The position numbers were made by a program, and so were the translations under genes. From Bedellia somnulentella (taxonomy: Eukaryota; Arthropoda; Insecta; Lepidoptera; Bedelliidae), in the NCBI GenBank assembly GCA_963576735.1, contig OY755190.1:3217695-3281694 (forward strand): a DNA stretch of 64,000 bases, in the 5' to 3' direction. Of the stretch, positions 785 through 31,637 are shown one piece after another. Every line of letters starts with the position of its first letter. Within the stretch, counting starts at the first letter, position 1. The notes under the pieces are model-generated. The model did no database searches. It was not told where the DNA came from and saw only the letters and a program-made list of their open reading frames with translations.

Positions 785-2254
785 TTAACTTATTATATTA
801 AGCAATTCCTCTGATTCCGTGTATGTAAGATTTAAAAGCCACGATTGAAGTTTTTTCTTGCATTCAAAGTTGTTTAAGTTATATAATACTAGTAATCTAT
901 TAATTTTATTATATAAGTATGGACCTAAAAATATAAAGAATCTATTTGTAATGGAAAATTTTGCACTATAAGTATTCAAACATACTATATCTTTTCGCCT
1001 CCTGTTTAGTGTATCAGGGTTGAAGTGTAAGCTGGCATGCTGCTTTAGAACAGTGAATAGAATAAAGAGCTGGCGCACAGTTAGCACTTTGCATTGTTTA
1101 TATAGTTCGGTAGTAGGGAAATAGAAAGGGCGCGCTGTGGCTACTTTAAGTAGCGCTCTTTGAGCTCGTTCCAGTTTTAACATAGTGGTAATGCCAGCAC
1201 CTCCCCAAGATTTTATGCAATAAGTCAGTAAGGATTGACCAAGCGCTTGATAGATTTGTTTTATTAAAGCGTAGTCACATATGTGTCTCAACTTTTTAAA
1301 TATTACTATAAGTTTTCTAATTCTATTACAGAGTGCATTAATATGGACCTTAAAAGTTAAAGTAACATCGAGAGTAATTCCAAGATATTTGATGTTAATT
1401 GCTTTGGAGATAGTTGAGCATGGGCATGGTGCGCTATCAGTGCAAGTGCGGTGATGTGCATAAAGCGGGGTATTAGCGAGTAATGGTGTAGAAGTGTTCC
1501 TTGCGAAAATCATATACATAGTTTTATCAGTGTTCAAGGACAGAAAATTATTAAAAAGCCAGTCATTCACAATACTAAAGCCAAATTGAGCGAATTTATA
1601 AGCTTCGTCTATTGTTTTTGCAGAAAAAAGTAAGGCTGTGTCATCTGCATATGAAACTATGGTGCCGTTATTAAGTTGGAGATTACATAGCTCATTAATA
1701 TAAATCAAAAATAGGCTGGGTCCTAAGATACTACCCTGAGGGACGCCATAGGGGTGGTTTTTTGAAAATGTGCTATAATTGTCTCCAATTTTTAGGCACT
1801 GAAGTCTATTACTAAGATAACTTTCAAATAATTTTAACTGAGTATCCCGAATGCCGATATTTTCTAATTTTCGCAATAAAATTGGAATTGAAATTGTATC
1901 AAAGGCTTTTTTGAGGTCGAGAAAAATCCCTATAACATGCATACCTTTGTCCAAATTTTGCACAATTTCATTTGTAAGGCAATGGACTGCGTCATCAGTA
2001 GATAACTTTTTACGGAAACCAAATTGACAACTTGAGAGAAAGGATATTTCATCTAAATATTTTATTAACCTACTGTTCATTATTTTTTCCAAAATTTTAG
2101 AGAAAGTGGGAAGAAGAGAAATCGGTCTGTAATTATTTGGTTGGTTTTTATCCCCCGATTTATAAATCGGAATAACCACAGCTTTTTTTAATGACTCGGG
2201 GAATATACCTTGAGACAAGCAATTTTGAAATATGAGAGTTAACGGAGGGGCTAG
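785..2254 (-). pseudogene. Inner LINE ORF2, 3' part: reverse transcriptase and C-terminus
   Basis: This is the carboxy-terminal half of the polymerase that starts at 18045. RT motif A is FLDLKKAFD, motif B GVPQGSILGP and the catalytic motif SYADDTALLF. The C-terminal region resembles that of the separate LINE at 41200-44142. Residues read upstream of 2254 belong to the Polinton inverted repeat. The frame joins that of the other half exactly once the duplicated 6 bp are counted only once, which dates the Polinton insertion to a time when this ORF was intact. Confidence 0.88.
2249..2254. repeat. Polinton target-site duplication, left
   Basis: GGCTAG directly abuts the left inverted repeat. The same six bases abut the right repeat at 16579-16584. 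On the LINE coding strand it covers the codons ..CTA GCC of ORF2. Confidence 0.97.
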
Positions 2255-2350
2255 AGTAGTAGGGTTATGGGAGTTCTGGCTCAACCCCCTCCACCCCCGC
2301 TTCTCTCCCCTCTCTCGGCTCAAAGTATTATCAAGGGCAGCAGACCCAAC

Positions 2351-2393
<43 letters not shown>

Positions 2394-2652
2394 TAGCCCC
2401 CCATTTGGAGCGATTGCGCTGGGTTTCAGAGCTGTATCTGTAAGCGTTTCAGAGATAAATAATCCTTTCCAAACCTCCTAGATGATTAGTAATCACCTCA
2501 TTAATGATGCCTCAGCTTCATGCTCAAAACTCATTAAGCTAATGCATCATTGTATTTGATTTCAATGTCTTAATCACCTACCTGACGTCATCCACATTCT
2601 AAACAAAACCCACTTTAACGAATACTAACATAATGTTTTAATGCTCAAGTCT

Positions 2653-2762
2653 CAAACATTCACGCTGTATATCCACGGAAGGGTAGGCAGAGGTACTACT
2701 ACTTCTAAACATCATATGACATTAACAACCGAGGTTCTGCCTAGTGAGCTATCACGGATGAT
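2653..2762 (-). repeat. SINE-B fragment inside left TIR
   Basis: Diverged and internally shortened copy of the tRNA-headed SINE seen complete at 49579-49925. It starts with the CATTCACGC...GGCAGAGGTACT tail and ends with the AGCTATCACGG head. The identical fragment is in the right TIR at 16071-16180. Confidence 0.75.
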
Positions 2763-2803
2763 TTAATATTTATTTTATATTGACTTATGATATTTCGCAT
2801 ATT

Positions 2804-3040
2804 ATGTAGGCTTAGAATAGCACTACCCCATTTCTTACTGCAGGTGTACTTAAGAGGCAACTAACGGTATTGGGGCTTTAAAGGGATTTTCGTGCGATGA
2901 GGTTGGAGGCCGCTCACAATAAAACTTTATTTCATCATCTGTTCCCCATTCAACTTTCCAAAAGTGGCTAAAGTATTTTTAATTCCTTAGCTCTGGCTAC
3001 CCCTTCTAGAGATTTATAGTCGTGAGCATATTTATGTATG
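2804..3040 (+). repeat. Repeat A copy inside left TIR
   Basis: Copy of the family that runs from GGCTTAGAATAGCACTACCCC through AAGAGGCAACTAACGGTATTG to TATAGTCGTGAGCATA. Its mirror is at 15793-16029. It is a host repeat captured by the Polinton repeat. Confidence 0.85.
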
Positions 3041-3384
3041 ATGTATCTATATAAATTACTTATACTTATAATAACTTATTCGTTCTGTCTATCCAATACA
3101 ATATTATCATTTTCCACACTTCACAATTTTTATATATAAATTCATCATATTGCGGCTACTTGATTAATTAAACAAGTGTGCGAATACGTATCTCATCATT
3201 TTTTGAAAACATACGTAGTCTACCTACTCTTTCTCATAATATGGAAGTCTTATCGGAACTTTATCGAAATAGTTAACGATATTAGTTATCAAATACTCAT
3301 TAACATGCTAAAGTCCTGTTTGTCAATCAACAATATTAAGAAACGAGAAAATCAACATCTTTATCACAATTGCATCACTACGAG

Positions 3385-3420
3385 TATATAACATGGTCAG
3401 ACAATAGATTCTTCATATTG
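3385..3420 (+). promoter_or_regulatory. Possible core promoter of the TIR gene, left copy
   Basis: A TATATAAC box at about 3385-3392 lies some 100 bp before the ATG at 3492, and a TTCATA start-like element follows at about 3410. The same arrangement is mirrored in the right TIR near 15413-15448. This is inference from motif and spacing. Confidence 0.4.
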
Positions 3421-3491
3421 CGTTGATAGTGACCCGTTACTACTACTCTCCTTTGCTCGTACAAGTGAATACAACACCTCCACTACAAACT

Positions 3492-4197
3492 ATGGAAGTA
3501 AGTATATCTTAACACATTATTTTATTGTATTGTTAATATATTTTCGCTATAATACTATTGTGTTAAACGTAGTTGATGGATCCTGGAACCCGTATATGAC
3601 ATTGTACATGTATGTATCTTATGTGTATGCTATAAAGATTCCAAACCATAAAGTGTTAACAGTGGGTAACCTTATCTAATAATGTTTGTTATTTGCTATT
3701 TGTTTTAGACATCACATTGTGCCGACATCATAGATGAAACGTTGGTGGAGAATACTTTTAAAACCTATTACTATGGTTTGTCGGACGAAGAAACATCTCT
3801 ACCACCGCCTTCATACTCCACGAAGAAACGAAAGCATTCAGCACTCGAACACTCGATTGATGAGTTTTTCGAAGAAAATAAAAAGAAGAAAACGAACTGC
3901 TCATCTACTGTTGGTCGGGCCACAAAAGACGGCGGAATGTCATATGTTTCGTCAAATCGAAATGATGCAGCGAATGCCACACATATGATTAAAATTGAAA
4001 TATTCGATCTTAAAAAGACAGCAAACATCGATCAACAAAATCAATGGAAATACGCCGACGTGCGGCTTAAGTATTATGTGGAACCGACAAAAAATTCGAA
4101 TCACCAAAGAGTTCGAGAAGTAATATATAACATAACGAAAGAAATTTCAGAAATACCAAACGTTAAAAAATATCACTTTTCTAATAAAAATTCTTAA
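3492..4197 (+). CDS. TIR-encoded protein of unknown function, 164 aa, two exons (left copy)
   Basis: Exon 1 (3492-3497) is only ATG GAA, followed by a perfect GTAAGT donor. The 211-bp intron ends in TGTTTTAG, and exon 2 is 3709-4197. The join keeps the frame and replaces an otherwise missing start, since exon 2 has no usable early ATG. The product is hydrophilic with two basic clusters that look like nuclear localisation signals (TKKRKH near residue 42 and NKKKKT near residue 60), an acidic patch (SDEET) and a more structured C-terminal half. I recognise no known domain. The gene lies wholly inside the inverted repeat, so the element carries two identical, divergently placed copies. A nuclear, possibly DNA-binding or regulatory role is a guess. 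Confidence 0.75.
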
Positions 4198-4312
4198 TGT
4201 TAAATACGTTAAATAATATTAAACTTAATAACGCCTTACTTAAGTATTTTTCATTAACAAATTGAATTACTCATTAGTCATATCATTAGCTAACACAGTG
4301 TTAGTAACAAAT

Positions 4313-4341
4313 ATAAAAGGTCTGTAGGTTACCTTTCAATC
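4313..4341 (+). promoter_or_regulatory. Core promoter of the Polinton DNA polymerase gene
   Basis: A strong TATAAAAG box at 4313-4320 is followed about 25 bp later by a TCAATC initiator-like sequence (around 4336-4341), about 60 bp before the ATG at 4400. Spacing fits an arthropod TATA-plus-initiator promoter. Confidence 0.6.
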
Positions 4342-4399
4342 ATTATTACATTTTTAAACGAAGATAGTAACATCACTCTTGTATAGTACTGTTATCCAA

Positions 4400-7300
4400 A
4401 TGGAATCTAACAACAGGAATAATGGAAGGAATTGCTTTGGAGAAGATCAATGTCTCATCGATGAGTATCTGGTCGACTTATGTATAGAGGCTGAAGAAAA
4501 TATACGTAACCAGCAGAGTTTATCACCAATATATGACCGTTTCTATGATGCTGATTTGGTTGAACTTTGTATGGAAATCGAAAAAAGGTAAAATTCTTTA
4601 TAATTATCTTCGACTTTAAGTTTTTGAAATGGTATTTATATTTACTTATGTTTTGTTTATCTTAATAGGGAAATGGTACAAAATGGAACAGGGTTAAAGC
4701 GTCTTCGTATAAACAGTGGAGAAGAAAATAAAGAAGATATGAAGAAACGTCGCCTTGATGAACCCTCTACATCAGCTGAAATCAACCCTACATCAGTTGA
4801 TGCTAACTGTGAGATGAAGTTTTGTGAAGTATGTCATATTAACGTCAAAAAAAGGTATTTAAGCAATCATTTAAAGAGTAACTTACATAAAAATAATACG
4901 CAGAAAATTCATAATTTTTTTTCAAATGTTAAACTGATTGAAACTGCATTTGGTAAGAGAATTTATACTTATAGAATAACTTCACCTTCTTCTGAAACAG
5001 AATTTCTTACTATAGAGTCTTTTATAAACGCAATAACACATATATTATTACACTTATTTCATGAAAACGTACAGTCGCTTAAATCCTTTAAAGTAAATTT
5101 CATATTACATGCTATCTTTATACAACAAACCAAAGATTTAACTAATGCATTTGATTTTCAAACCACCAACTATATTATTAATGAATCAGAAGATATTTCA
5201 ATTTTCATTAATAAAATCAAAGATACTTTTGCGTGTAAAATAAGTGAATTTGAGAGAAAGGATAGTGGTTGGAGTCTTAAAAATCTCATTAGTATTGATA
5301 TGAATATAAATAAATATAATCCTCTACGAGGATCTTCTTTTATAGATTTACCTCTTGATATTAAACTTAAAAAAGCTGTTATTAATGTAAAAAACAACGA
5401 TATTTATTGTTTTAAATGGGCGATACTATCAGCTTTATACCCTGTGAACAAAAATAGCGATCGAGTGAGCTCCTATGCAGACAAACAAACTTGTTTAAAA
5501 TTTAATGGTGTAGAATTTCCCGTTAAATTAACAGACATAAACAAAATTGAAAAGTTGAATAATATAAGTGTTAACGTTTTTGGACTAGAATATAATTCTT
5601 CAGCAAAAAAACATAATGTGGTAGGACCTTTATATTTCACTAAATGTAGAAAAGCAATCCATATAAATTTACTATATACAACGGAAGGCAGTAATGGGCA
5701 TTATAGTTATATTAAAAATTTATCCCGATTAGTAAGTAGTCAGCTTACTTTGAAAAATGGAGCCGTACACATATGTGATGGATGCCTTTTGTACTTTTAT
5801 ACTAATGAAGCACTTGAAAATCATCATTTAAATGATTGTAAACATATACGTTGTGATCTTCCTACCCAGGGAACATTTAAGAAAAATAGATTTTTACAAA
5901 ATGTCCCTAGTAACGAATTGTGTTTTGATAATTATGATAAAAAACTAAAAGTTCCGTTTATAATTTATGCTGATTTTGAATCATTCCTAAGGCCAATCGA
6001 ATCTTGTTCTAATAACCCAAACCTATCTTCCACTAGCAATGTTCAAAGACACGATGTTTATAGTTTTGGTTATTATATGAAATGTTCATATAACCAAAGT
6101 TTATCCAAATATGTAACTTACACTGGAGAGGATTGTGCAAAAGTTTTCATGACATATTTGTATGAGGACATTAAAAATATAAGTACGAAATTGAGTTTTC
6201 AAAAGAGTCCCCACGAGCTTACCGAATCAAACATAAATTTAATTAATAGCACAAGTAACTGTCACATTTGTGAGTTAGAAATAACTTCAGAAAAGTATAT
6301 AGATTATGATTGGCGAACAGGATCTTTCTTAGGTATATGTCACGAAAATTGTAGTAAACATTTTCATAAAGTTTCATTCATACCTATTGTGTTACATAAC
6401 TTAAGTAACTATGATGCTCATTTCATAGTCCACGCATTAAATTTTAAAGAAGGTGATATACAAATTATACCTCAAAATAAGGAAAAGTATATTTCATTTT
6501 CTAAAGTCTTAAATATAAACGGAAAGCAAATAAGTTTAAGGTTTATCGATTCATTTAAATTTTTGGCAAGTAGCTTAAGTTCACTAGCAAATAATTTAAA
6601 TAAAGAACAATTTGTTGAGCTTAAAAATGAGTATCCATTAGATGTAGATTTTAATTTATTAAGAAGAAAAGGTATTTTCCCTTATGAATATGTAACTAAT
6701 TTTGAAACTTTAAAATTGAAATCTTTACCAGATATTGAACATTTCTACAGTTCTCTTACCAATGCAAGTATAACTTTAGATGAATATTCTCATGCTAATG
6801 CAGTTTGGGTTAACTTCAAATGTTGTACATTGAGTGATTACTCTAATTTATATTTGAAAACTGATGTTTTACTACTATGTGACATATTTGAAAATTTTAG
6901 AAGTGTTTGTTTAAGCACATATAATTTAGATCCTGCTCATTATTATACCGCCCCCGGTCTAAGTTGGGATGCAATGCTAAAATATACAGGAGTTCGACTT
7001 GAACTACTAACAGATTTTAATAAAATTGCTTTTGTAAAGAGCGGAATCAGAGGTGGAGTATCTCAATGTAGTAATCGTTATGCTAAGGCTAATAACCCAT
7101 ATATGAAGAACTACAACAAAAACGAAGTCACATCCTATTTATGTTATTTAGATGCTAATAACTTGTACGGTTGGGCTATGTCTCAATATTTACCAGCTTC
7201 AGATTTTGAATGGGTAGACCCTAGCATAGATTTTAATTTATCAGACACGTCTAATATTGGGTATATATTAGAAGTAGACTTAGAGTACCCTGAAACTCTT

Positions 7301-8368
7301 CATGATTTACACTCAGATTTTCCTTTATGTCCTGAAAATATTTGTGTTGGTGAATGTAATGATAAGAAGCTTGTATTAAATTTAAATAATAAAATTAAGT
7401 ATGTAATACACTATAGAAATCTTTTACAATGTTTGGAAATGGGTATGCTTCTGAAAAAAGTGTATAGAGTTTTAAAATTTAAGCAGAGTCCGTGGTTAAA
7501 AGAATACATAAAATTAAATACTGATAAACGAATGCTAGCACGTTCAGATTTTGAAAAAGATTTCTATAAATTAATGAACAATTCTATTTTTGGGAAGACA
7601 ATGGAGAATATTGAAAAAAGAGTTAATGTTAAGTTACTTACACACTGGGAAAATCATGGTAAAATTCAAGGAGCTCAAAGTATGATTGCGCGCCCTGAAT
7701 TTCACAGCCTCTCAATATTCTCTGAAAGTCTCGTTGCAGTTCAATTACAAAAAACTAAATTATTTTATAACAAACCCATTTATTTAGGTTTTTGTATTTT
7801 AGATATATCAAAAACTTTAATGTATAACTTTCATTATAAATATATGTGTAAAAAGTTTAGCAATTTAAAATTATTATATACTGATACTGATAGTTTAGTT
7901 TACCAGATATTTTGTGCAGATTATTACAAAGAAATTCGGTCTGATCTTGTTCAATACTTTGACACTTCTGATTATCCTGAGAATAATATTTATCAATTTC
8001 CACTAATCAATAAGAAAAAAATAGGATATTTCAAAGATGAGACTAATGGTCGAATTTTTAATGAATTTGTAGGTTTAAGATCAAAGATGTATGCAATGGA
8101 CATTGATAACATGTCTGTGACTAAAGCCAAAGGTGTTAATAAAACTGTAACAAAGAGTTTGAAAATGGAAAATTATAAATCTTGTTTGTTTAATAAAAAT
8201 ATTCAACATGCTGAGATGTATAGATTTAAGTCAATTAAACATGTAATTTTTACACAAAAAATTAATAAAATAAGTTTATCGTATAATGATACTAAACGTT
8301 ATATTATACCTGATTCGACTGATACTTTAGCATGGGGGCACTATAGTATAAGACCAGAAGCGGTATAG
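4400..8368 (+). CDS. POLB: Protein-primed family B DNA polymerase, 1295 aa, two exons
   Basis: Exon 1 is 4400-4587 and exon 2 is 4669-8368. The 81-bp intron begins GTAAAA and ends TTAATAG, and splicing joins the two frames with a shared AGG codon. The N-terminal third carries two C2H2-like fingers (CEVCHINVKKRYLSNH near residue 115 and CDGCLLYFYTNEALENH near 430). The exonuclease follows: ExoI YADFESF near 497, ExoII HNLSNYDAHF near 645, ExoIII YLKTDVLLL near 795. The TAPGLSWDAML motif of protein-primed enzymes is near 830. Polymerase motifs are A DANNLYGWAM near 889, B KLMNNSIFGK near 1031 and C YTDTDS near 1133. All catalytic acids are present, so it should replicate the linear element from its ends. 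Size is normal for Polinton PolB. Confidence 0.95.
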
Positions 8369-8420
8369 TTATTTAATTATTGTAACCTATTGTAAATTAG
8401 ATGTTTGTTGTATACTTAAG

Positions 8421-8428
8421 CTAATAAA
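8421..8428 (+). terminator. Polyadenylation signal after PolB
   Basis: TAATAAAC lies about 55 bp after the PolB stop codon, in the 196-bp gap before the ATPase gene. Confidence 0.5.
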
Positions 8429-8564
8429 CTGATTTGTAAACAAAAATATTTCTTTTCCTCATTTCCTTCATATACACGCTAAATTTTTTTTATTAAACAT
8501 TAATCGATCACCTCTCGAAAGCAATATACGTAGTCTATTAAGTCAAAACATAAAGTAAAATAAA

Positions 8565-9200
8565 ATGTTTCATTTCCAACATCCTTTTACTTCAATTGTA
8601 GCTGGTCCAAGTAGTTGTGGAAAAACTGTTTTTGTCCATAATTTTTTAAAACACATGCATCACATATGTAATGTCCAATTCAAAAACATTGTTTGGTGTT
8701 ATGATGAAATGCAACCATTGTATAACCTAAGTGGAGTGAAATATCATCAAGGTTTACCTGATTTAAATATGTTTGATGGAAAACTACCTCAGCTTATAAT
8801 AGTTGATGATCTGATGAGAGAAACGGATGGTCGTATTGTAGATATTTTTACAAAAGGTAGTCATCACCGCAATCTAAGCATATTTTATATAACGCAGAAT
8901 CTCTTTCATCAAGGTAAAGGACAACGTGATATTTCATTGAATTGTAACTACATTATTTATTTTAAAAATCCAAGAGACAAAACACAAGTTAGATACCTCG
9001 CTCGTCAACTATCACCTGAAAACCCCAAATTTGTTGAAGATGCTTACAAAGATGCAACGAGTCACCCATATGGTTATCTTATGATCGATTTAAAACAAAA
9101 CACCAATGAATCGTTTAGATTTAAATCAAATATTTTTTTAAATGAATATACTATTTGTTACATACCTAAAAATAAATATAAAAGGAGTGGTATTCGATAA
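8565..9200 (+). CDS. ATP: Genome-packaging ATPase (FtsK/HerA-type), 211 aa
   Basis: The Walker A motif GPSSCGKT is at residues 14-21 and the Walker B motif LIIVDD at 77-82. FYITQNLFHQ at 107-116 follows in the position of the sensor region. These define the A32-like packaging ATPase that pumps DNA into the capsid in Polintons, adintoviruses and virophages. Length is normal for the family. It begins 196 bp after PolB and ends 20 bp before the next gene, on the same strand. No damage is visible. Confidence 0.93.
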   Translation: MFHFQHPFTSIVAGPSSCGKTVFVHNFLKHMHHICNVQFKNIVWCYDEMQPLYNLSGVKYHQGLPDLNMFDGKLPQLIIVDDLMRETDGRIVDIFTKGSHHRNLSIFYITQNLFHQGKGQRDISLNCNYIIYFKNPRDKTQVRYLARQLSPENPKFVEDAYKDATSHPYGYLMIDLKQNTNESFRFKSNIFLNEYTICYIPKNKYKRSGIR

Positions 9201-9220
9201 GAGTTTATCATTTTTAAAAT

Positions 9221-9547
9221 ATGAAAGCACGAGTAAGGACATATAAAAAGTTTATTCATGCACTACATTTATTGGAACCCAAATACCGCAAAGTATTGTT
9301 ACAAGCCTGTTGTACTAAAAAAATAAATTGTATCTGTGAATGTATTTATAACATATTAAAAGGGAATATTCCTTTGAAGTCTGAAGTAAAAAAAAAACTT
9401 ACTAAGTATAAAACTATACTCAGAAAATTAGTTAAAAGAGGAAAAAACATTTCAAGAAAACACATTTTGATACAAAAAGGTGGTGCATTTTTACCTATTA
9501 TTTTGAGTTCCGTTTTATCATCAATATTAAAATCTTTTACACCCTAA
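9221..9547 (+). CDS. Small basic protein with hydrophobic C-terminal helix, 108 aa
   Basis: The protein is strongly basic (many Lys and Arg, plus five Cys in the first half), and its last 25 residues contain GGAFLPIILSSVLSSIL, which would form an amphipathic or membrane-active helix. It lies between the ATPase and a 270-residue gene, with gaps of 20 and 4 bp. Small proteins of this kind recur next to the ATPase in insect Polintons. By analogy with adenovirus core and minor proteins it may bind DNA or membranes in the virion, but that is inference and I cannot name it. Confidence 0.72.
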   Translation: MKARVRTYKKFIHALHLLEPKYRKVLLQACCTKKINCICECIYNILKGNIPLKSEVKKKLTKYKTILRKLVKRGKNISRKHILIQKGGAFLPIILSSVLSSILKSFTP

Positions 9548-9551
9548 TAAA

Positions 9552-10364
9552 ATGGAAAATGCTAAAAAAATGATATTAGTCGAACCAGAAGTCATAGAAA
9601 AATTAAAAGCAGGAAGCAGTACTACTAATGTTAGTAATTTATCACTTCTTGATGAAGAAATGCATAAAATATTGAACAAAAAGATGGAAGACCGTGAAAA
9701 ATGGCCACTTTATTTACAAACATTACAAAGGTATTTATACTTTATAAACAAAGAACGACAACCTGTAGAAATACCGATTCTATCCTTAAACGAGCAGAAT
9801 TGTATAGATAACCAAACAAAACCTGAGACTACCTCAGATACACCAGAAAAAAATGCTATGAAGAATCAGGAGAAAAATATTTTTGAAACTGAAAGATTGG
9901 ATGGAAATGTAAACATTAGTACTAAATTAAAGAACTTATATGATAAGACTCAAATACTTCAGTTAATACCAAAAACATATAAAATAAAGGGTGAATTGTT
10001 ATTAGACGTTCTTTTAAATAATAAAGACAAGGTTACTTGGAATAAACAGGGAACAGTGTTTATCAATAATAAAGAAATTTATAAAAGTAATATAGTTGAC
10101 TTAGTAAACGATGTGTTAAGACCACTTAAAAATAGCTCCCCTAGTGGATGGGTAGATTTTATTATACTTTTAAAAGATTTACAGGTACCTATGAGTTATA
10201 TAGGAAATGCAAAGAGAGCAACTGTCATAAAGGTTTTAAACAGCACACCGGAAAGTGCACCTGAGGCGAACACCACAAACAGTCTATGTTCTACACCCAC
10301 TTCAGTAGACAAAGACATTAAAAGAGTCAAACGTACACACGATTGGAATAAATGGACCCCTTAA
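9552..10364 (+). CDS. Conserved Polinton protein of unknown function, 270 aa
   Basis: The N-terminal part is helical (EKLKAG and DEEMHKILNKK, with a tryptophan at KWPLYL). The middle is a low-complexity linker, then comes a compact domain at about residues 125-230 with the motif SPSGWVDFIILLKDL. The C-terminal tail is Ser/Thr-rich and basic. I recognise the arrangement as one seen in other invertebrate Polintons but do not know a function. It starts 4 bp after the previous stop and overlaps the integrase start by 13 bp in another frame, so the genes are packed as tightly as in a virus. Confidence 0.72.
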   Translation: MENAKKMILVEPEVIEKLKAGSSTTNVSNLSLLDEEMHKILNKKMEDREKWPLYLQTLQRYLYFINKERQPVEIPILSLNEQNCIDNQTKPETTSDTPEKNAMKNQEKNIFETERLDGNVNISTKLKNLYDKTQILQLIPKTYKIKGELLLDVLLNNKDKVTWNKQGTVFINNKEIYKSNIVDLVNDVLRPLKNSSPSGWVDFIILLKDLQVPMSYIGNAKRATVIKVLNSTPESAPEANTTNSLCSTPTSVDKDIKRVKRTHDWNKWTP

Positions 10365-11440
10365 CAGAACTGCACAACATTTACTACAATATTTCTCATC
10401 CAGCTGGTTACAGCAGTTTAAATAAACTATATGTTACTATGAAAAATAAACTTAAGAAAAGTGAAATAAGAAAATGGCTGCAGTCTCAAGAAACTTACAC
10501 CTTACATAAACCAGTCCAACGTAGATTTTCAAGAAATAAATACATCTTATCGAACTGCAATGAATTATGGCAAGCTGATTTAAGTGATATGCGCTCATAT
10601 AGTGAACAAAATGATGGATTTAAATATATATTATGTGTCATTGATGTTTTTAGTAAGTATGCTTTTGCGAGAGCTATAAAGAAAAAAGACTCTAAAACAA
10701 TAAAAACGTCTTTTGCTGATATTTTTAAAGAAGCTCAAACAACCCCTACCCATATTCAAACCGATAAAGGTACTGAGTTTATTTCTAAAGATGTTCAAAA
10801 ATATTTAAAAAGTTGTAATATTAACTACTATACAACAAATAATCCTGATATTAAAGCTAGTATTGTTGAAAGATTTCAACGAACTCTTAAAATGAAAATG
10901 TGGCGATATTTTACTCATAAAAATACTAATAGATATATAGACATATTACATAATTTAATGTATTCGTATAATCATAGTTACCATCGAAGTATTAAAATGT
11001 GCCCGTCTGACGTTAATTCGAATAATATCATGACTGTATGGCAAAACTTGTATGGTAAAAATGAAACACAAGATAAAAAACTAGTTACAGTGTCTCGCTT
11101 AAAAGTTGGAGACTATGTTAAAATTGCTAAATATAAACACATTTTTCAAAAAGGTTATGAAACGAATTGGAGTGATGAAATATTTATTATAACTTCTATT
11201 ATCAAACGAACACCATGGGTTGTTTACACTATAAAAGATCTAAAAGATGAAGCGATAACGGGAACGTTTTATGAGAAAGAATTACAAAAAATATCTATGA
11301 CTCCAAATGGAAAATTTAAAATAGATAAAATCTTATGCACTCGCAATTTTGGTAGCAGAAAAGAGTTGTTCGTTAAGTGGAAAGGTTATCCGAATAAATT
11401 TAATAGTTGGATATTAGCCTCTAGCTTGGAATCAATATGA
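10352..11440 (+). CDS. INT: Retrovirus-like integrase with C-terminal chromodomain, 362 aa
   Basis: The RNase H-like catalytic core has Asp76 in WQADLSDM, Asp138 in QTDKGTEF and Glu173 in KASIVERFQRT, with the last two 34 residues apart by my count. The NPDIKASIVERF stretch is characteristic of Polinton integrases. Residues about 322-362 form a chromodomain (FVKWKGYP, then NSWI) that could guide insertion to chromatin. The enzyme inserts the linear element and makes the 6-bp duplication seen at the ends. The start codon lies inside the end of the upstream gene, and the stop overlaps the next start as ATGA. Confidence 0.95.
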   Translation: MDPLTELHNIYYNISHPAGYSSLNKLYVTMKNKLKKSEIRKWLQSQETYTLHKPVQRRFSRNKYILSNCNELWQADLSDMRSYSEQNDGFKYILCVIDVFSKYAFARAIKKKDSKTIKTSFADIFKEAQTTPTHIQTDKGTEFISKDVQKYLKSCNINYYTTNNPDIKASIVERFQRTLKMKMWRYFTHKNTNRYIDILHNLMYSYNHSYHRSIKMCPSDVNSNNIMTVWQNLYGKNETQDKKLVTVSRLKVGDYVKIAKYKHIFQKGYETNWSDEIFIITSIIKRTPWVVYTIKDLKDEAITGTFYEKELQKISMTPNGKFKIDKILCTRNFGSRKELFVKWKGYPNKFNSWILASSLESI

Positions 11441-12198
11441 GTCACGATAACTTTTATTTAACCTTACCTAGTAATAGCTCAATGTTGTATTTCCCCGATA
11501 ATAAAACATCGAATTTTTCAACGAAACTACCAAAATCAATTAAATTAGAAGGAGAGTGGGCGGTAGGTGTAGTAGAATTCCAGTACCCATGTACTATGTT
11601 CACAGTTCAAGAGAAAGAAAATATTATGTACATATCAAAAATAATGACAGTCCCAAATATGGAAACACCAACCTTAGTTACTTATAAAAGTCATATTCCA
11701 CCATCTAGTTACGAAACAATTGATGATGTGTTAACTGTTCTAAACGCCAAGGAAAGTTTCAAGTTACGACATGATAAGATAGCAAAATATGTAACTTTGA
11801 CACAAGATAAAGACGAATTAGTTTCACTAAAATTTTCACCAAAATTAAGTTTGCAACTTGGGTTTGACCCCTTAACTGATGTTGTTACAAAAAGAACTGG
11901 AAAATTCCCTGCTAACTTATACTTAGGGCTTCCATCACAGCTATATATTTATTGTGATATTATTGAACCTCAAATTGTTGGTGATGTAATGTGTCCACTT
12001 TTAAGGATCGTTCCATTAGATCCTATCAAGTATGTTTATGGCTCGAACAAAATGCATATATTTTCACCACCACACTACGTCCCTGTAATGCGTAGAGAGT
12101 TTGACACCATTGAAATAGATATTAGAACAAACATTGGTGAAAAAGTACCATTCCAGTTTGGTACTTCATATGTTAAACTACATTTTAGGTGTAAATAA
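11437..12198 (+). CDS. Minor capsid (penton) protein, single jelly-roll, 253 aa
   Basis: The N-terminus has the FYLTLPSNSS and YFPDNKTSNFSTKLP pattern and a WAVGVVEFQYP stretch that recur in Polinton minor capsid proteins. The rest is beta-rich with few charged runs. In this family it is predicted to form the pentameric vertices of an icosahedral capsid. It overlaps the integrase stop by 4 bp and is followed 2 bp later by the pVI-like gene. Assignment rests on pattern recognition and on its place just before the major capsid gene. Confidence 0.82.
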   Translation: MSHDNFYLTLPSNSSMLYFPDNKTSNFSTKLPKSIKLEGEWAVGVVEFQYPCTMFTVQEKENIMYISKIMTVPNMETPTLVTYKSHIPPSSYETIDDVLTVLNAKESFKLRHDKIAKYVTLTQDKDELVSLKFSPKLSLQLGFDPLTDVVTKRTGKFPANLYLGLPSQLYIYCDIIEPQIVGDVMCPLLRIVPLDPIKYVYGSNKMHIFSPPHYVPVMRREFDTIEIDIRTNIGEKVPFQFGTSYVKLHFRCK

Positions 12199-12200
12199 TA

Positions 12201-12650
12201 ATGTATCCGAAATTTGAAAATAACATTTGTCCATATGAAAGTTACTATACACATCAAGCTGGTTCTGGTATAGGGGTTATTTACAAAGGTGTAGCTCACC
12301 AACGAGGTCATGGGATCGGTAGTTTTTTGGGGGGATTATTTAGATCAGTTTTACCTCTTCTTTCAAGTGGTGCAAAAGTAGTAGGTAAAGAAGCCTTGAA
12401 ATCTGGAGTTGGATTGTTATCTGATATGGTCAAAGCACGACCTTTGGAAGAATCTTTAAATAATCGGTTTCAAGAAGCAACAGCTAATCTTAAACGAAAA
12501 GCAGATGGAAAAATCGGTCGTGTATTGGGAGGTTCAGGACTTAAATATAAGAAACGTAACAATCGAAACCTCAGTCGCTCTAAAAACACTCAACAAGTAA
12601 CATCAAAAAACATTGGGGATAAACAATATAGTGACATATTTACAAATTAA
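12201..12650 (+). CDS. pVI-like minor virion protein, 149 aa
   Basis: A glycine-rich amphipathic segment (GIGSFLGGLFRSVLPLLSS, about residues 38-56) is followed by helices and a basic tail (LKYKKRNNRNLSRSK). This order matches the membrane-lytic/cement protein VI of adenoviruses and its Polinton counterparts. LGGSG at residues 109-113 fits the (M/I/L)-x-G-x-G consensus cut by adenain proteases, and such a protease is encoded nearby at 14013. The gene sits 2 bp after the minor capsid gene and 2 bp before the major capsid gene. Confidence 0.75.
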   Translation: MYPKFENNICPYESYYTHQAGSGIGVIYKGVAHQRGHGIGSFLGGLFRSVLPLLSSGAKVVGKEALKSGVGLLSDMVKARPLEESLNNRFQEATANLKRKADGKIGRVLGGSGLKYKKRNNRNLSRSKNTQQVTSKNIGDKQYSDIFTN

Positions 12651-12652
12651 TA

Positions 12653-13972
12653 ATGTCATATTTACATCATCACTCTTGTGAATGTGCTAAGTCAGAATTA
12701 GATATATTTGCGTTACCGTCTACCCAAACAAGTATAGAAAGTGGTCAATGGATAAATTATAAGCCGATTTCATCCATGAGTGATGATGGTCCAATAGAGT
12801 TTCAAATACCAGGATCGGGTGATGACTACATAGATTTATCACATACATTAATTTATGTTAAAGCAAAAGTTATTAATTCTGATATGACATTTCTCACAGA
12901 AGATACTATTGTTGCCCCAGTCAACAACTGGCTTCATTCTTTATTTAGTCAACTTGATGTTTACCTTAACCAAAAGCTTATATCTCCACCAAATAACACT
13001 TATGGATATCGTTCGTACATAGAAACGTTGTTAAATTATGCGCCTGCTGCTAAAAATTCACATCTGAGGTGTGGGTTGTGGTATGAAGATACAGCTGGGA
13101 AAATGAATGCAACTGATGAAACAAACGTTGGGTTTAAAGAACGACAGAAATTTGTTAAAAACAGTAAAGAAGTTGAAATGATTGGTCATCTTCATGGGGA
13201 CATATTTAATCAAGAAAAGTTTTTGATTAACGGCGTAGAAATGTGTGTAAAGTTAGTTCGATCGAGAGATTCCTTTAATCTCATATCTTCGTCAAATGAT
13301 GTTAAGTTAAAGGTAACTTTGTTAGATGCCACTTTGATGATTCGGAAAGCTCGTATTAATCCAAGTGTACTATTAGCCCATCAGAAAGTGTTATCTTCTA
13401 CTACTGCTAAATACCCAATTACACGAGCAGAAGTTAAGGTTTTAACCATACCAGCTGGTATTCAGGGAAAAACATTAGATAATATTTTCTTAGGACAAGT
13501 ACCAAAAAGATGTATTATTGGTTTTGTAGATAATACTGCATTTAATGGTAGTTTTATAAAGAATCCTTATGATTTTAACAATTATGGTATTAATACATTC
13601 AGTTTGTATATAGATGGAATCCAAATACCTTCTAAAGCATTACAACCTATCTTTAGCAACAATTTGTATACTGCAGCCTATCATACACTATTTTCCGGTA
13701 CTGGCATTCATTTTCTTAATGAAGGAAATGGTATATCAAGGGAGCAGTATCTGGTTACTGTGGTTATCTGCTTGATGGCATTTGATTTAACACCTGACTT
13801 ATCAGCCAATTCTAGTGGTCATTGGAATCTCATAAAACATGGTAGTGTAAGATTGGAAGTAAGGTTTGAGAATGCTCTAACAGAAACTGTGAATTGTATT
13901 GTATATGCTGAGTTTGATAATATAATTGAAATAGATAAAAATAGAAACGTTAGTGTTGACTTTAGCAGTTAG
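12653..13972 (+). CDS. MCP: Major capsid protein, double jelly-roll, 439 aa
   Basis: The length and the QTSIESGQWINYKPISS, FQIPGSGDDYIDL and VNNWLHSLFSQLDVYLN stretches are those of the Polinton major capsid protein family, often labelled F54H12.2-like in animal genomes. Two beta-rich halves fit a double jelly-roll hexon. The frame is open throughout and the acidic C-terminus ends 40 bp before the protease gene. Together with the penton, protease and ATPase genes it indicates that the element could form particles. Confidence 0.9.
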   Translation: MSYLHHHSCECAKSELDIFALPSTQTSIESGQWINYKPISSMSDDGPIEFQIPGSGDDYIDLSHTLIYVKAKVINSDMTFLTEDTIVAPVNNWLHSLFSQLDVYLNQKLISPPNNTYGYRSYIETLLNYAPAAKNSHLRCGLWYEDTAGKMNATDETNVGFKERQKFVKNSKEVEMIGHLHGDIFNQEKFLINGVEMCVKLVRSRDSFNLISSSNDVKLKVTLLDATLMIRKARINPSVLLAHQKVLSSTTAKYPITRAEVKVLTIPAGIQGKTLDNIFLGQVPKRCIIGFVDNTAFNGSFIKNPYDFNNYGINTFSLYIDGIQIPSKALQPIFSNNLYTAAYHTLFSGTGIHFLNEGNGISREQYLVTVVICLMAFDLTPDLSANSSGHWNLIKHGSVRLEVRFENALTETVNCIVYAEFDNIIEIDKNRNVSVDFSS

Positions 13973-13984
13973 TTTATATATAAT
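13972..13984 (+). promoter_or_regulatory. TATA-like stretch before the protease gene
   Basis: TTTATATATAATTTAG lies just after the MCP stop and about 30 bp before the protease ATG. It could be a core promoter, but AT-rich DNA makes chance matches likely. Confidence 0.3.
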
Positions 13985-14012
13985 TTAGTAATATTTGAAT
14001 TTTCATTAGTTT

Positions 14013-14507
14013 ATGAACACATTGTTAGGTGCATGTATGTTAACTATGAATAGTTTACAAATAGGATATTATTTGAAACAAATTAATAACTCTTTAGAAT
14101 ATAACGTGTTTGCTGCAAACCAATTACCTATTCATATAAGTAAACCTATATACTTAATCAGTAATTTAGATCCAGATTCTAAGCCAGGATCTCATTGGAT
14201 TGCAATTTGTGTGGATAGTAATGGTATTGGCGAGTACTTCGATACTTTTGGACGCAAACCAGGGAACCCTCATTTATCATTTTTGAGGAGGAACACTACT
14301 AAATGGTTTTACAACTCAAAAGCTATTCAAAATGTTTTTTCATCTGTTTGTGGACAATATTGTTTGCTATATCTTTATTTAAAAATAAGAGGTATGAAAT
14401 TATTTGATTTTGTAGAAATGTTTAGTAACAGAACTTACAAAAATGATTTGTTGTTACAAAAAATGTTTAATGTATTTTTAGTGACTAACAATAATTTAAA
14501 TGTGTAA
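14013..14507 (+). CDS. PRO: Adenain-like cysteine protease (maturation protease), up to 164 aa
   Basis: The C5/C48-type catalytic set is visible in the expected order: His61 in GSHWIAI, Asp77 in GEYFDTFG and Cys117 in SVCGQYC. This matches adenovirus protease and Polinton proteases, which cleave minor capsid proteins during maturation. The first ATG is at 14013; the ATG at 14046 is an alternative start that removes 11 residues and is closer to the usual family N-terminus. It is the last unique gene before the right TIR, and an AATAAA overlaps its stop. Confidence 0.92.
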   Translation: MNTLLGACMLTMNSLQIGYYLKQINNSLEYNVFAANQLPIHISKPIYLISNLDPDSKPGSHWIAICVDSNGIGEYFDTFGRKPGNPHLSFLRRNTTKWFYNSKAIQNVFSSVCGQYCLLYLYLKIRGMKLFDFVEMFSNRTYKNDLLLQKMFNVFLVTNNNLNV

Positions 14508-14516
14508 TAAAATAAA
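14506..14516 (+). terminator. Polyadenylation signal after the protease gene
   Basis: AATAAAATAAA overlaps the stop codon of the protease gene. It may serve all the upstream late-type genes. Confidence 0.5.
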
Positions 14517-14615
14517 AAATATTATTAAAATATGTTGTGTTTTTATTCCTTACTTCGTTGATATGGATAATGTTAAGAATATCAGTAAAACCATAAAATT
14601 AAAATAAACACTATC

Positions 14616-14621
14616 TTTATT
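14616..14621 (-). terminator. Polyadenylation signal of right TIR gene only
   Basis: Reading on the - strand, AATAAA consists of five bases of the TIR plus the first unique base outside it. The left TIR copy ends AATAAT at the same place. Confidence 0.55.
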
Positions 14622-14635
14622 TAACGTATTTAACA

Positions 14636-15341
14636 TTAAGAATTTTTATTAGAAAAGTGATATTTTTTAACGTTTGGTATTTCTGAAATTTCTTTCGTTA
14701 TGTTATATATTACTTCTCGAACTCTTTGGTGATTCGAATTTTTTGTCGGTTCCACATAATACTTAAGCCGCACGTCGGCGTATTTCCATTGATTTTGTTG
14801 ATCGATGTTTGCTGTCTTTTTAAGATCGAATATTTCAATTTTAATCATATGTGTGGCATTCGCTGCATCATTTCGATTTGACGAAACATATGACATTCCG
14901 CCGTCTTTTGTGGCCCGACCAACAGTAGATGAGCAGTTCGTTTTCTTCTTTTTATTTTCTTCGAAAAACTCATCAATCGAGTGTTCGAGTGCTGAATGCT
15001 TTCGTTTCTTCGTGGAGTATGAAGGCGGTGGTAGAGATGTTTCTTCGTCCGACAAACCATAGTAATAGGTTTTAAAAGTATTCTCCACCAACGTTTCATC
15101 TATGATGTCGGCACAATGTGATGTCTAAAACAAATAGCAAATAACAAACATTATTAGATAAGGTTACCCACTGTTAACACTTTATGGTTTGGAATCTTTA
15201 TAGCATACACATAAGATACATACATGTACAATGTCATATACGGGTTCCAGGATCCATCAACTACGTTTAACACAATAGTATTATAGCGAAAATATATTAA
15301 CAATACAATAAAATAATGTGTTAAGATATACTTACTTCCAT
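14636..15341 (-). CDS. TIR-encoded protein of unknown function, 164 aa, two exons (right copy)
   Basis: Mirror copy of the gene at 3492-4197: exon 1 15341-15336, intron 15335-15125, exon 2 15124-14636. The coding sequence is identical, so the protein has the same basic clusters and no recognised domain. It is transcribed toward the protease gene, converging on it. Unlike the left copy, it is followed by an AATAAA, formed across the inner TIR boundary at 14621-14616. Identity of both copies points to recent duplication or continued homogenisation of the repeats. Confidence 0.75.
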
Positions 15342-15792
15342 AGTTTGTAGTGGAGGTGTTGTATTCACTTGTACGAGCAAAGGAGAGTAGTAGTAACGGG
15401 TCACTATCAACGCAATATGAAGAATCTATTGTCTGACCATGTTATATACTCGTAGTGATGCAATTGTGATAAAGATGTTGATTTTCTCGTTTCTTAATAT
15501 TGTTGATTGACAAACAGGACTTTAGCATGTTAATGAGTATTTGATAACTAATATCGTTAACTATTTCGATAAAGTTCCGATAAGACTTCCATATTATGAG
15601 AAAGAGTAGGTAGACTACGTATGTTTTCAAAAAATGATGAGATACGTATTCGCACACTTGTTTAATTAATCAAGTAGCCGCAATATGATGAATTTATATA
15701 TAAAAATTGTGAAGTGTGGAAAATGATAATATTGTATTGGATAGACAGAACGAATAAGTTATTATAAGTATAAGTAATTTATATAGATACAT

Positions 15793-16029
15793 CATACATA
15801 AATATGCTCACGACTATAAATCTCTAGAAGGGGTAGCCAGAGCTAAGGAATTAAAAATACTTTAGCCACTTTTGGAAAGTTGAATGGGGAACAGATGATG
15901 AAATAAAGTTTTATTGTGAGCGGCCTCCAACCTCATCGCACGAAAATCCCTTTAAAGCCCCAATACCGTTAGTTGCCTCTTAAGTACACCTGCAGTAAGA
16001 AATGGGGTAGTGCTATTCTAAGCCTACAT
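15793..16029 (-). repeat. Repeat A copy inside right TIR
   Basis: Mirror of 2804-3040 with the same boundaries. Confidence 0.85.
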
Positions 16030-16070
16030 AATATGCGAAATATCATAAGTCAATATAAAATAAATATTAA

Positions 16071-16180
16071 ATCATCCGTGATAGCTCACTAGGCAGAACC
16101 TCGGTTGTTAATGTCATATGATGTTTAGAAGTAGTAGTACCTCTGCCTACCCTTCCGTGGATATACAGCGTGAATGTTTG
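16071..16180 (+). repeat. SINE-B fragment inside right TIR
   Basis: Mirror of 2653-2762 with the same end points and the same internal deletion, which shows the two are copies of one insertion. Confidence 0.75.
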
Positions 16181-16439
16181 AGACTTGAGCATTAAAACAT
16201 TATGTTAGTATTCGTTAAAGTGGGTTTTGTTTAGAATGTGGATGACGTCAGGTAGGTGATTAAGACATTGAAATCAAATACAATGATGCATTAGCTTAAT
16301 GAGTTTTGAGCATGAAGCTGAGGCATCATTAATGAGGTGATTACTAATCATCTAGGAGGTTTGGAAAGGATTATGTATCTCTGAAACGCTTACAGATACA
16401 GCTCTGAAACCCAGCGCAATCGCTCCAAATGGGGGGCTA

Positions 16440-16482
<43 letters not shown>

Positions 16483-16578
16483 GTTGGGTCTGCTGCCCTT
16501 GATAATACTTTGAGCCGAGAGAGGGGAGAGAAGCGGGGGTGGAGGGGGTTGAGCCAGAACTCCCATAACCCTACTACT

Positions 16579-16584
16579 GGCTAG
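16579..16584. repeat. Polinton target-site duplication, right
   Basis: GGCTAG, the direct copy of 2249-2254. A 6-bp duplication is what Polinton integrase produces. Confidence 0.97.
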
Positions 16585-18045
16585 TATATCCTTACAAAAT
16601 TTCAAAACTTTACATGAGATGTTATCCCATCCGGGGGCACTATTACTTTTTAAGTTATTTATAATACCCTCTACTTCAGAGACGTCTGTATCGATCATAA
16701 CAAACGATTTAAGCCTTGAAGGGTGTTTAGAATTAGCTTGATAGTATTTTTCAAAATTTGCCTGTTCAGATAAATTCTTACCAATGTTTATGAAAAAGTT
16801 ATTTATAAATTCTGCTGACTGTGTGGGAGTTGACCTTAGCTTGAATAGTTCGTTAGGGATATCATTATGTTTTGTCGTGCAAGTCTTTTGTTTAATGAAA
16901 TTCCAAATTAATTTGTTGTTACTTCCCGCAGATTGAAGTTCTTTTTTCTCGTACTCACATTTTACATTTTTCAAAATTTTATTGCAAAAATTGCGATATC
17001 GTTTGTAAATAAGAGTAATAGTATTGTTAGTAGGCTCAAGCATATACCTTTTGTGCAACTTATCTCTATGTTTTATGCATCTGATTAAGCCAGGAGTTAT
17101 CCAAGGTTTTATTATTTGGTACTTCCTGCTTTGACGAAACGTGCTTGTATTTTTCGCAATTGCGTTTTGAACACAGTTAGTCACGTAATTCATGGAAAAG
17201 TTTACGTCAGTATTATTACAAACCGTGCTGAACTCTATTTGAATTAAATCACGTCTTACGTTTTGCATGTTAACACTAGAATAGCTGCGGCGGCATTTGT
17301 TATGAGTCAGCTTTAAATTCAATGTCAATAGCACCGCGCGATGATCGGTAATAGTCGAGTTAGTAACAAATGTATGTGTCAGGTAATTCGTTTTTATCAT
17401 AACATGATCTAGACAGGATCCGCTGTTGTGAGTGGGAAAGGTATGGGCGGGTGATATTCCATGAAAAGCACATATGTTTAAGTATTCCTGGATAGAAGAA
17501 TCGTTGTTTTCTGTTATAATGTCAATATTCAAGTCTCCAGTTAAAACAATGTTTTTTGTAGAGGCGAAAGCATGTAGTATACTGTTCAAGGATTGTAAAA
17601 AATTATCAAGTTTGCGAAAAGATGGAGAGCGGTAAAAAGATAATATGACTAAGTCCTTACTTATCAGTCCTAGACAATTACTTTCATTAACACAAATTTC
17701 TTCTATGGTAAAGTTTAACGTATCTCGTACATATATTATAATGCCATCATTTTGGTTATGTAGTTTAGTTGAGCTGTGTAATTTGTACCCTGTGAGGGTG
17801 GGTAAACTATGTGCTCGGTTTTGTAACCAACATTCAGTCAAGATAATAATATCAAAAGGAACATTAAATCGAGTTAATAATATTAGAAAATCATCGAAAT
17901 TTTTGTGAATACTACGAATGTTTTGGGTTAAGATTTTAAGAGTACCTTTCTCATTACAAATTAATTGGCTACACAATTCAACATCACACGAGTGAGATTC
18001 ACCAAATTTTATATTGTCTAAGTCATAGATAATTTGATGTGTCAT
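16579..18045 (-). pseudogene. Inner LINE ORF2, 5' part: APE-type endonuclease
   Basis: This is the amino-terminal half of the LINE polymerase, 489 codons up to the Polinton target site. It carries the endonuclease signatures NIRSIHKNF, GDLNIDI and DHRAVLL in the usual order, followed by the linker into the RT domain. The frame is cut at the GGCTAG duplication, with GCC as its last codon, and continues at 2248 on the other side of the Polinton. Reading on from here into the inverted repeat gives about 60 spurious residues, including a polylysine run. Without the insertion ORF2 would be 977 codons including stop, with no other break seen. Confidence 0.88.
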
Positions 18046-18155
18046 TGATAAATAAACTAAAGAACGTTTAAAAATAAATTTAAAAAAGAAGTAAAAAATG
18101 TGAAAAGAAACTTAATTAATAAGTGCTTATAGATAATAAGAAGATACGGGCGCTC

Positions 18156-19415: not shown

Positions 19416-19489
19416 AATAATCTCTTAGTTAAATACACTAATACACTAATACAACATATTAACACTACAATAGTCTATGCGATTAGTCG

Positions 19490-31299: not shown

Positions 31300-31637
31300 G
31301 GTTATTAAGTTGTGTTTGATTGAATTAATACAAGAACTTAAATATAAAAGATAAACATTAGTAAATTTTTAAAAGAAAACGACCACTACACAACAAACAA
31401 AACAATAAGTCTTTATTGGCATTTGGTTACCTTTTGACATTGTTTGTTTGGCTGTTGGGAAAAGACAGAACAACGAAGACGCTAACGAACGCAACGTATA
31501 AATGTGCTGCCATTACAAAAATATAGAACTGTCTATTTTATACTGGTCTCCCTTTTTTCCAACCCGCATCCGTCAATCATGCATGTCATTGTCATGTCAT
31601 TCATTGTCATTGTCATATCACATATGGTAGGGATCAA
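31300..31637. promoter_or_regulatory. Shared divergent promoter of Sas-4 and nardilysin
   Basis: Only 338 bp separate the two start codons, so the region must hold both promoters or a bidirectional one. At 31584-31618 the hexamer-like unit TGTCAT occurs several times in tandem just before the nardilysin ATG. No TATA box at a fitting distance is obvious for either gene. Confidence 0.6.

What the first reader, a model, noticed from the sequence alone, without database searches (positions are those of the whole stretch)
3492..4197. Spliced gene of unknown function inside both terminal inverted repeats
Polinton TIRs usually lack genes. Here a 164-residue protein with two nuclear-localisation-like clusters is encoded twice. 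Exon 1 is only ATG GAA, followed by a perfect GTAAGT donor, so ordinary ORF calling misses its start. Two identical divergent copies at the ends suggest a role tied to termini or to early expression.
Basis: partly seen in the sequence, partly recalled or inferred. Interest (0 to 1): 0.8.

Follow-up and report, generated by a model that had tools for sequence, protein, structure and literature searches.

The report
Parvovirus-like gene in insect transposon ends
A large virus-like insect transposon carries, in each of its two end repeats, a small spliced gene whose predicted fold matches a little-understood accessory protein (NS2) of insect parvoviruses, which hints at a gene shared between two very different virus groups.

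Summary
Window 2255-16578 is a 14,324-bp Polinton/Maverick-type element with a 6-bp target duplication and a 1,962-bp terminal inverted repeat (TIR) with one mismatch. Each TIR carries the same complete 164-codon gene: exon 1 ATG GAA, then a GTAAGT...TTTTAG intron. Both copies point inward (convergent, not divergent).

The gene is real: 93 database relatives, the closest about 56% identical; the 12 named species are Lepidoptera. The two-codon exon has comparative support: 40 of 56 unnamed relatives show F-Q or L-Q (a translated splice acceptor) just before the conserved block, against 1.2% of control windows.

The C-terminal domain is predicted confidently (pLDDT 94). Of its 23 strong BFVD hits, 21 are densovirus/parvovirus proteins, 13 of them named NS2 (best E 9e-7). 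No sequence-level match to NS2 was found. The tail holds conserved basic clusters around an IDxFF motif that resembles a PCNA-binding box.

Best reading: an NS2-type nuclear accessory protein for replication or transcription, doubled because the TIR spans the whole gene. Gene and fold are well supported; function and PCNA binding are inferred.

The parts
2255..16578 (.). Polinton/Maverick-type element, 14,324 bp
   Evidence: TIRs, 6-bp target duplication, rve integrase with chromodomain
2249..2254 (.). target site duplication GGCTAG, left copy
16579..16584 (.). target site duplication GGCTAG, right copy
2255..4216 (+). left terminal inverted repeat, 1,962 nt
14617..16578 (-). right terminal inverted repeat, one mismatch to the left one
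3385..3391 (+). TATA-like motif TATATAA upstream of the left gene copy (motif only)
3492..3497 (+). TIR gene, left copy, exon 1 (ATG GAA)
   Evidence: two-codon exon supported by relatives
3498..3708 (+). intron, GTAAGT...TTTTAG, 211 nt, phase 0
3709..4197 (+). TIR gene, left copy, exon 2 with stop; C-terminal domain from about 3892
4183..4188 (+). AATAAA inside the last codons (candidate poly(A) signal)
15336..15341 (-). TIR gene, right copy, exon 1
15125..15335 (-). TIR gene, right copy, intron
14636..15124 (-). TIR gene, right copy, exon 2 with stop

Best explanation
The TIR gene encodes a small nuclear accessory protein of the NS2 type known from densoviruses. Shown by computation: each TIR carries a complete copy; the protein is a conserved family; its C-terminal domain is predicted to have the NS2 fold; its tail carries conserved basic clusters around an [IL]DxFF motif. 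Inferred: it is transcribed inward from a promoter in each TIR, in double dose and probably early; it enters the nucleus through the basic clusters; the IDxFF peptide docks on the host PCNA clamp or a similar replication hub; the NS2 domain helps the element's DNA replication and/or sets the activity of its promoters, as reported for NS2 of insect ssDNA viruses. The copies stay identical because one TIR is rebuilt from the other during replication, and they exist because the repeat reaches inward just past the gene's poly(A) signal.
For: Family: 13, 75 and 70 hits in three searches, 93 distinct proteins, with W115, K97, K105, R121 and the FF invariant or nearly so. Fold: two models; hits 1-20 of the whole model all belong to densoviruses or other parvoviruses; with the domain alone 21 of 23 hits with probability 0.97 or more, the next being 0.16. 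Motifs in 83 sequences of 130 aa or more: [ILMV]xxF[FY] in 76 (7.5% in shuffles), basic pair-x10-12-basic in 61 (10%), core between basic clusters in 73 (1.2%). Literature on NS2: nuclear, bipartite signal, changes viral promoter activity in BmBDV (PMC11768917, parts 1-3 of 5 read); JcDV NS-2 lowers p9 activity (PMC5978394, section 18); HaDV2 NS2 nuclear (PMC5296992, passages).
Against: No densovirus NS2 appeared in three sequence searches, although the last reached E 10; the link is predicted fold alone, and no unrelated control model was run. NS2 is a poorly understood protein, so the fold gives little mechanism. The first Q of the PIP box is present in 1 of 83, and the window copy itself misses the 10-12 spacing (13-15 instead). 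The statement that NS2 is needed for efficient DNA replication (PMC6624781 citing Azarkh 2008, passage) concerns mosquito densoviruses, whose NS2 I did not test against this fold. BmBDV NS2 has its signal at the C-terminus, not before a C-terminal domain. Splicing, expression and timing have no RNA evidence.
Confidence: 0.6

Rival explanations
1. Real gene, incidental location: in most relatives it is a single-copy gene beside the TIR, and in this lineage the repeat merely grew across it. Position and double dose have no function. (This rivals the location part of the best explanation, not the NS2 part, so the odds are not exclusive.)
For: The TIR ends only 19 nt past the stop, as a chance extension could. 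A published scheme already draws a small polintovirus gene next to the TIR (PMC4061559, Figure 6 legend).
Against: The whole putative unit, from TATA-like motif to AATAAA, lies inside the repeat, but a chance extension could give this as well. My data do not decide.
Confidence: 0.4
2. A terminus-acting replication protein: a terminal protein or a TIR-binding initiator for protein-primed replication, hence its place in the TIR.
For: TIR location; conserved Tyr-rich block ENTFKxYYY; basic clusters.
Against: PMC4061559 (section 5) puts the likely terminal protein in the N-terminal part of PolB. The fold matches NS2, not a known initiator.
Confidence: 0.12
3. A host-defence antagonist (RNA silencing, piRNA or cell-cycle/death control) kept by the element, with NS2 of densoviruses doing the same job.
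For: Accessory gene of small size, fast change in the tail and strong conservation of short motifs.
Against: No known suppressor matched in Pfam, NCBIfam, PHROGs or the solved structures. The motifs fit the nucleus and replication better.
Confidence: 0.2
4. A virion or egress protein using the PPxY late-domain-like motif of the window copy.
For: The window protein has PPPSY.
Against: PPxY occurs in 2 of 83 sequences, the window's included.
Confidence: 0.03

Closest known systems
NS2 of densoviruses (as named in BFVD: Helicoverpa armigera densovirus, Bombus-associated virus Den2, Blattella germanica densovirus 1, Hordeum marinum Itera-like densovirus and others)
   Same: Predicted fold of the C-terminal domain: E 9.2e-7, TM 0.75, rmsd 2.3 A over 94 columns for the best; the first ten hits have TM 0.62-0.77 and rmsd 2.2-5.3 A. 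Nuclear-signal-like basic clusters.
   Different: No sequence-level match found. Here a stand-alone spliced gene in a TIR of a dsDNA element, whereas NS2 ORFs overlap or lie within NS1 in the densoviruses that I read about. The IDxFF tail was not compared.
NS2 of Bombyx mori bidensovirus (Bidnaviridae)
   Same: Small nuclear protein with a bipartite basic signal (R)KR(K)X10-12K3/5 (PMC11768917); 61 of 83 relatives here have a basic pair with the same spacing. PMC4061559 proposed a Polinton gene beside the TIR as a possible source of a small bidnavirus gene.
   Different: No bidnavirus protein among the 50 rows shown in either BFVD search; its signal is C-terminal; homology not established.
Musca hytrosavirus protein B2YG54
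   Same: Fold hit to the domain, E 4.3e-3, probability 1.00, TM 0.63. PMC8363768 (section 21) reports a possible very distant homologue of hytrosavirus gene MdSGHV056 in an adintovirus; I do not know whether B2YG54 is that gene.
   Different: Function unknown; weaker match; absent from the rows shown for the whole model.
PIP-box (PCNA-binding) peptides, known also in transposon proteins (pogo transposase, LINE-1 ORF2p)
   Same: [IL]xxFF core next to basic residues; definition Qxx[I/L/M]xxF[F/Y] from PMC5371812 (passages).
   Different: The first Q is missing in 82 of 83. Binding untested. Q-less PIP boxes in host proteins are recalled, from no call.

Membership tests
Polinton/Maverick | long TIRs and a 6-bp target duplication (criterion recalled) | tested here: met
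Polinton/Maverick | retrovirus-like integrase (with chromodomain in adintoviruses) | tested here: met
   rve E 5e-14 and Chromo E 7e-6, both above cut-off, ORF 10352-11440
Polinton/Maverick | protein-primed PolB | tested here: inconclusive
   ORF 4628-8368 has motifs that I recall from Polinton PolB (such as YTDTDS), but no real match in Pfam, NCBIfam, PHROGs or PDB
Polinton/Maverick | packaging ATPase and adenovirus-like protease | tested here: inconclusive
   Pox_A32 E 0.009 and Peptidase_C5 E 0.019, both under the curated cut-off
Polinton/Maverick | double-jelly-roll capsid protein | tested here: inconclusive
   ORF 12647-13972 fits in size and place, no library match
densovirus-type NS2 | fold of the NS2 domain | tested here: met
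   (predicted against predicted models)
densovirus-type NS2 | sequence or profile similarity | tested here: inconclusive
   no NS2 among hits; these searches need shared 5-residue words; no NS2 sequence could be fetched for a direct profile comparison (0 matches)
densovirus-type NS2 | gene overlaps or lies within NS1 | tested here: not met
   stand-alone gene; no parvovirus NS1 match among the ORFs scanned. Hence 'NS2-like domain protein', not a parvovirus NS2 gene
densovirus-type NS2 | nuclear localisation | not testable with these tools
   only signal-like basic clusters
bidnavirus NS2 | similarity to BmBDV NS2 | tested here: inconclusive
PCNA-binding (PIP-box) protein | core [ILM]xxF[FY] | tested here: met
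   67 of 74 aligned, 76 of 83 by pattern (V allowed too)
PCNA-binding (PIP-box) protein | first-position Q | tested here: not met
   1 of 83
PCNA-binding (PIP-box) protein | physical binding to PCNA | not testable with these tools
   needs a binding assay

The most novel reading that the evidence does not exclude
The Polinton TIR gene, densovirus NS2 and bidnavirus NS2 are one gene family that moved between dsDNA transposon-viruses and ssDNA viruses in insects. The Polinton TIR copy would be the missing source of the small bidnavirus gene next to the TIR, and its conserved IDxFF tail would show that the family works by recruiting host PCNA to viral DNA ends.
Probability: 0.25. Interest if true: 0.8.

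Novelty: new variant of a known kind. Interest (0 to 1): 0.62.

Why it matters
[quoted passage not shown] A fold-level match makes that guess directly testable, adds a candidate case of gene flow between parvoviruses and Polintons, supplies a large lepidopteran family in which to read off functional residues, and offers a concrete molecular hypothesis (docking on PCNA). In the held library one search for densovirus + NS2 + Polinton returned two papers; the sections and passages that I read in them report no such match.

Tried and rejected

No relatives confirmed in viral contigs (capsid and PolB of the element), genome contigs or plasmids. So I saw no DNA around any relative: TIR location elsewhere, intron DNA and dN/dS are untested. 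The genome search did not complete. Papers not held: Azarkh 2008, the adintovirus paper, Kapitonov and Jurka 2006.

Full report
Observation. The search for inverted repeats of at least 100 nt in 1-22000 returned one pair, 2255-4216 and 14617-16578, 1,962 nt, with a single mismatch. Directly outside lie identical 6-bp copies GGCTAG; when the flanks are joined, the interrupted reverse-transcriptase frame of a non-LTR element reads through. Between the repeats lie ORFs that fit a Polinton in size and order: the integrase with chromodomain is clear, ATPase and protease are weak matches, and the PolB and capsid ORFs gave no real library match; I call PolB by recalled motifs. The copies converge. 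TATATAA lies 107 nt upstream of the ATG, AATAAA lies at 4183, and the repeat ends 19 nt after the stop. A 37-nt A run near the tip is equally long in both repeats, which fits a recent insertion.

Is the gene real? The single-sequence search gave 13 proteins of 39 candidates, the weakest at 4e-19. A 14-sequence profile gave 75 of 1,585 candidates, the weakest at 4e-24. A 76-sequence profile gave 70 of 3,625, 18 of them new. That makes 93 distinct proteins; the closest are about 56% identical to the window copy. 17 carry organism names from 12 species. I looked up six of the 12 and all six are Lepidoptera; the other six (Cydia pomonella, Cydia amplana, Pararge aegeria, Aphantopus/Maniola hyperantus, Leguminivora glycinivorella, Chilo suppressalis) are Lepidoptera by recall. 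Two copies in one species can be as distant as 41% (Cydia pomonella) or 46% (Plutella), while others pair within a species at 73-99%. This fits several element lineages per host, but I could not see their surroundings.

The tiny exon. The conserved block is ENTFKxYY. Of 93 relatives, 70 have it by my pattern: 56 unnamed and 14 named; 23 lack it and were left out. In 41 of the 56 the block is preceded within 12 residues by an x-Q pair (x = F, L, Y, I, V, C, S or M). In a slightly different count over 14 residues, 40 of 56 hold F-Q or L-Q, against 1.2% of 7,332 windows of the same lengths from the rest of the same proteins. A run rich in F, L, C and S ending in Q is what a pyrimidine tract and a CAG acceptor give when read as codons. 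Of the 14 named models 8 begin M-D or M-E; the other 6 do not, nor do the three named ones without the block. MD|FTENTFK beside LFQ|FTENTFK, and ME|NSPNDEYTL beside SFQ|DTPNDEYTL, put the junction at the same place and in phase 0, as in the window. Against this, 15 of the 56, among them the nearest relatives of the window copy (P0001-P0004), lack the signature. That the unnamed proteins are unspliced genomic ORFs is an inference; there is no RNA evidence.

What the protein is. AlphaFold2 with 76 sequences gives a low-confidence N-terminal 60 residues and a confident domain (blocks at pLDDT 90-97). The domain alone, with 50 sequences that partly overlap the first set, gives mean pLDDT 94.1 and the order strand-strand-strand-helix-strand-helix. 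Against BFVD, hits 1-20 of the whole model all come from densoviruses or other parvoviruses. For the domain alone 23 hits have probability 0.97 or more: 21 from densoviruses or other parvoviruses (13 of them named NS2 or nonstructural protein 2), one from a Musca hytrosavirus and one without a name; the next hit drops to 0.16. The best, Helicoverpa armigera densovirus NS2, has E 9.2e-7, TM 0.75 and rmsd 2.3 A over 94 columns. Among the 21, TM by query runs from 0.44 to 0.77 and rmsd from 2.2 to 12.8 A, the poorest being lower ranks. Both models come from one family, so the two searches are not independent, and no unrelated control model was run. No solved structure stood out.

The tail. It carries ENTFKxYYY, an acidic SDEE-like stretch, and basic-IDxFF-basic. 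In 83 sequences of at least 130 residues (window included; shorter ones dropped) the core [ILMV]xxF[FY] is present in 76 (7.5% in shuffles of the first 110 residues), a basic pair with 10-12 spacing to a second cluster in 61 (10%), and the core flanked by basic clusters at 8-16 spacing in 73 (1.2%). In alignment columns the core is in 67 of 74. The window copy has the core but a 13-15 spacing. The first Q of a full PIP box occurs in 1 of 83. In print the PIP box is Qxx[I/L/M]xxF[F/Y] and occurs in transposon proteins (PMC5371812, passages). BmBDV NS2 has a mapped bipartite signal and changes viral promoter activity, raising P10 and possibly lowering P21 (PMC11768917).

Mechanism. The most economical reading is an NS2-type accessory protein, made from both ends, that goes to the nucleus and supports replication and/or transcription of the element; docking on PCNA by IDxFF is my proposed molecular step. 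Only the gene, its conservation, the motifs and the predicted fold are shown. Direction of transfer is open: in the densoviruses that I read about, NS2 overlaps or lies within NS1, which could mean birth there by overprinting and later transfer to Polintons, or the reverse.

Relation to the known. Krupovic and Koonin (PMC4061559; sections 4, 5 and 8 and passages of the legends read) derive bidnaviruses from a parvovirus and a Polinton, call the provenance of bidnavirus NS2 unclear, and suggest in the Figure 6 legend that a small gene next to the TIR may have come from the Polinton despite no significant sequence similarity. The present gene is a small TIR gene of a Polinton-type element with the NS2 fold of densoviruses. 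Bidnavirus NS2 itself was not among the rows that I saw, so that last link is untested. I file the protein as an NS2-like domain protein, not as a parvovirus NS2 gene.

Noticed in passing
4400-4587 and 4669-8368 (+): The adjacent PolB-like gene also looks spliced: a 188-nt exon 1 with its own TATA-like motif (4312), an 81-nt intron, then the long ORF; exon 1 holds two similar DLCIE / ELCME stretches.
   Followed up: partly
BFVD entry B2YG54: A Musca hytrosavirus protein shares the NS2-like fold, so the domain may also sit in a large nuclear dsDNA virus of flies; an adintovirus paper reports a possible distant hytrosavirus homologue.
   Followed up: no
2353-2389 and 16444-16480: A 37-nt A/T run lies about 100 nt inside each tip of the element and is equally long in both TIRs.
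   Followed up: no
18156-19424 (-), 16390-18111 (-), 785-2350 (-): The element sits in the ORF2 of a non-LTR retrotransposon whose gag-like zinc-knuckle ORF lies upstream (the gag-like label is by eye).
   Followed up: partly
28219-31368 (-): Long host ORF whose C-terminus resembles the centriole protein Sas-4/CPAP (recalled by eye, not searched), showing nuclear chromosomal context.
   Followed up: no
41158-44142 (+), 55024-57528 (-): Two further long reverse-transcriptase-like ORFs of non-LTR elements, seemingly intact (by eye).
   Followed up: no
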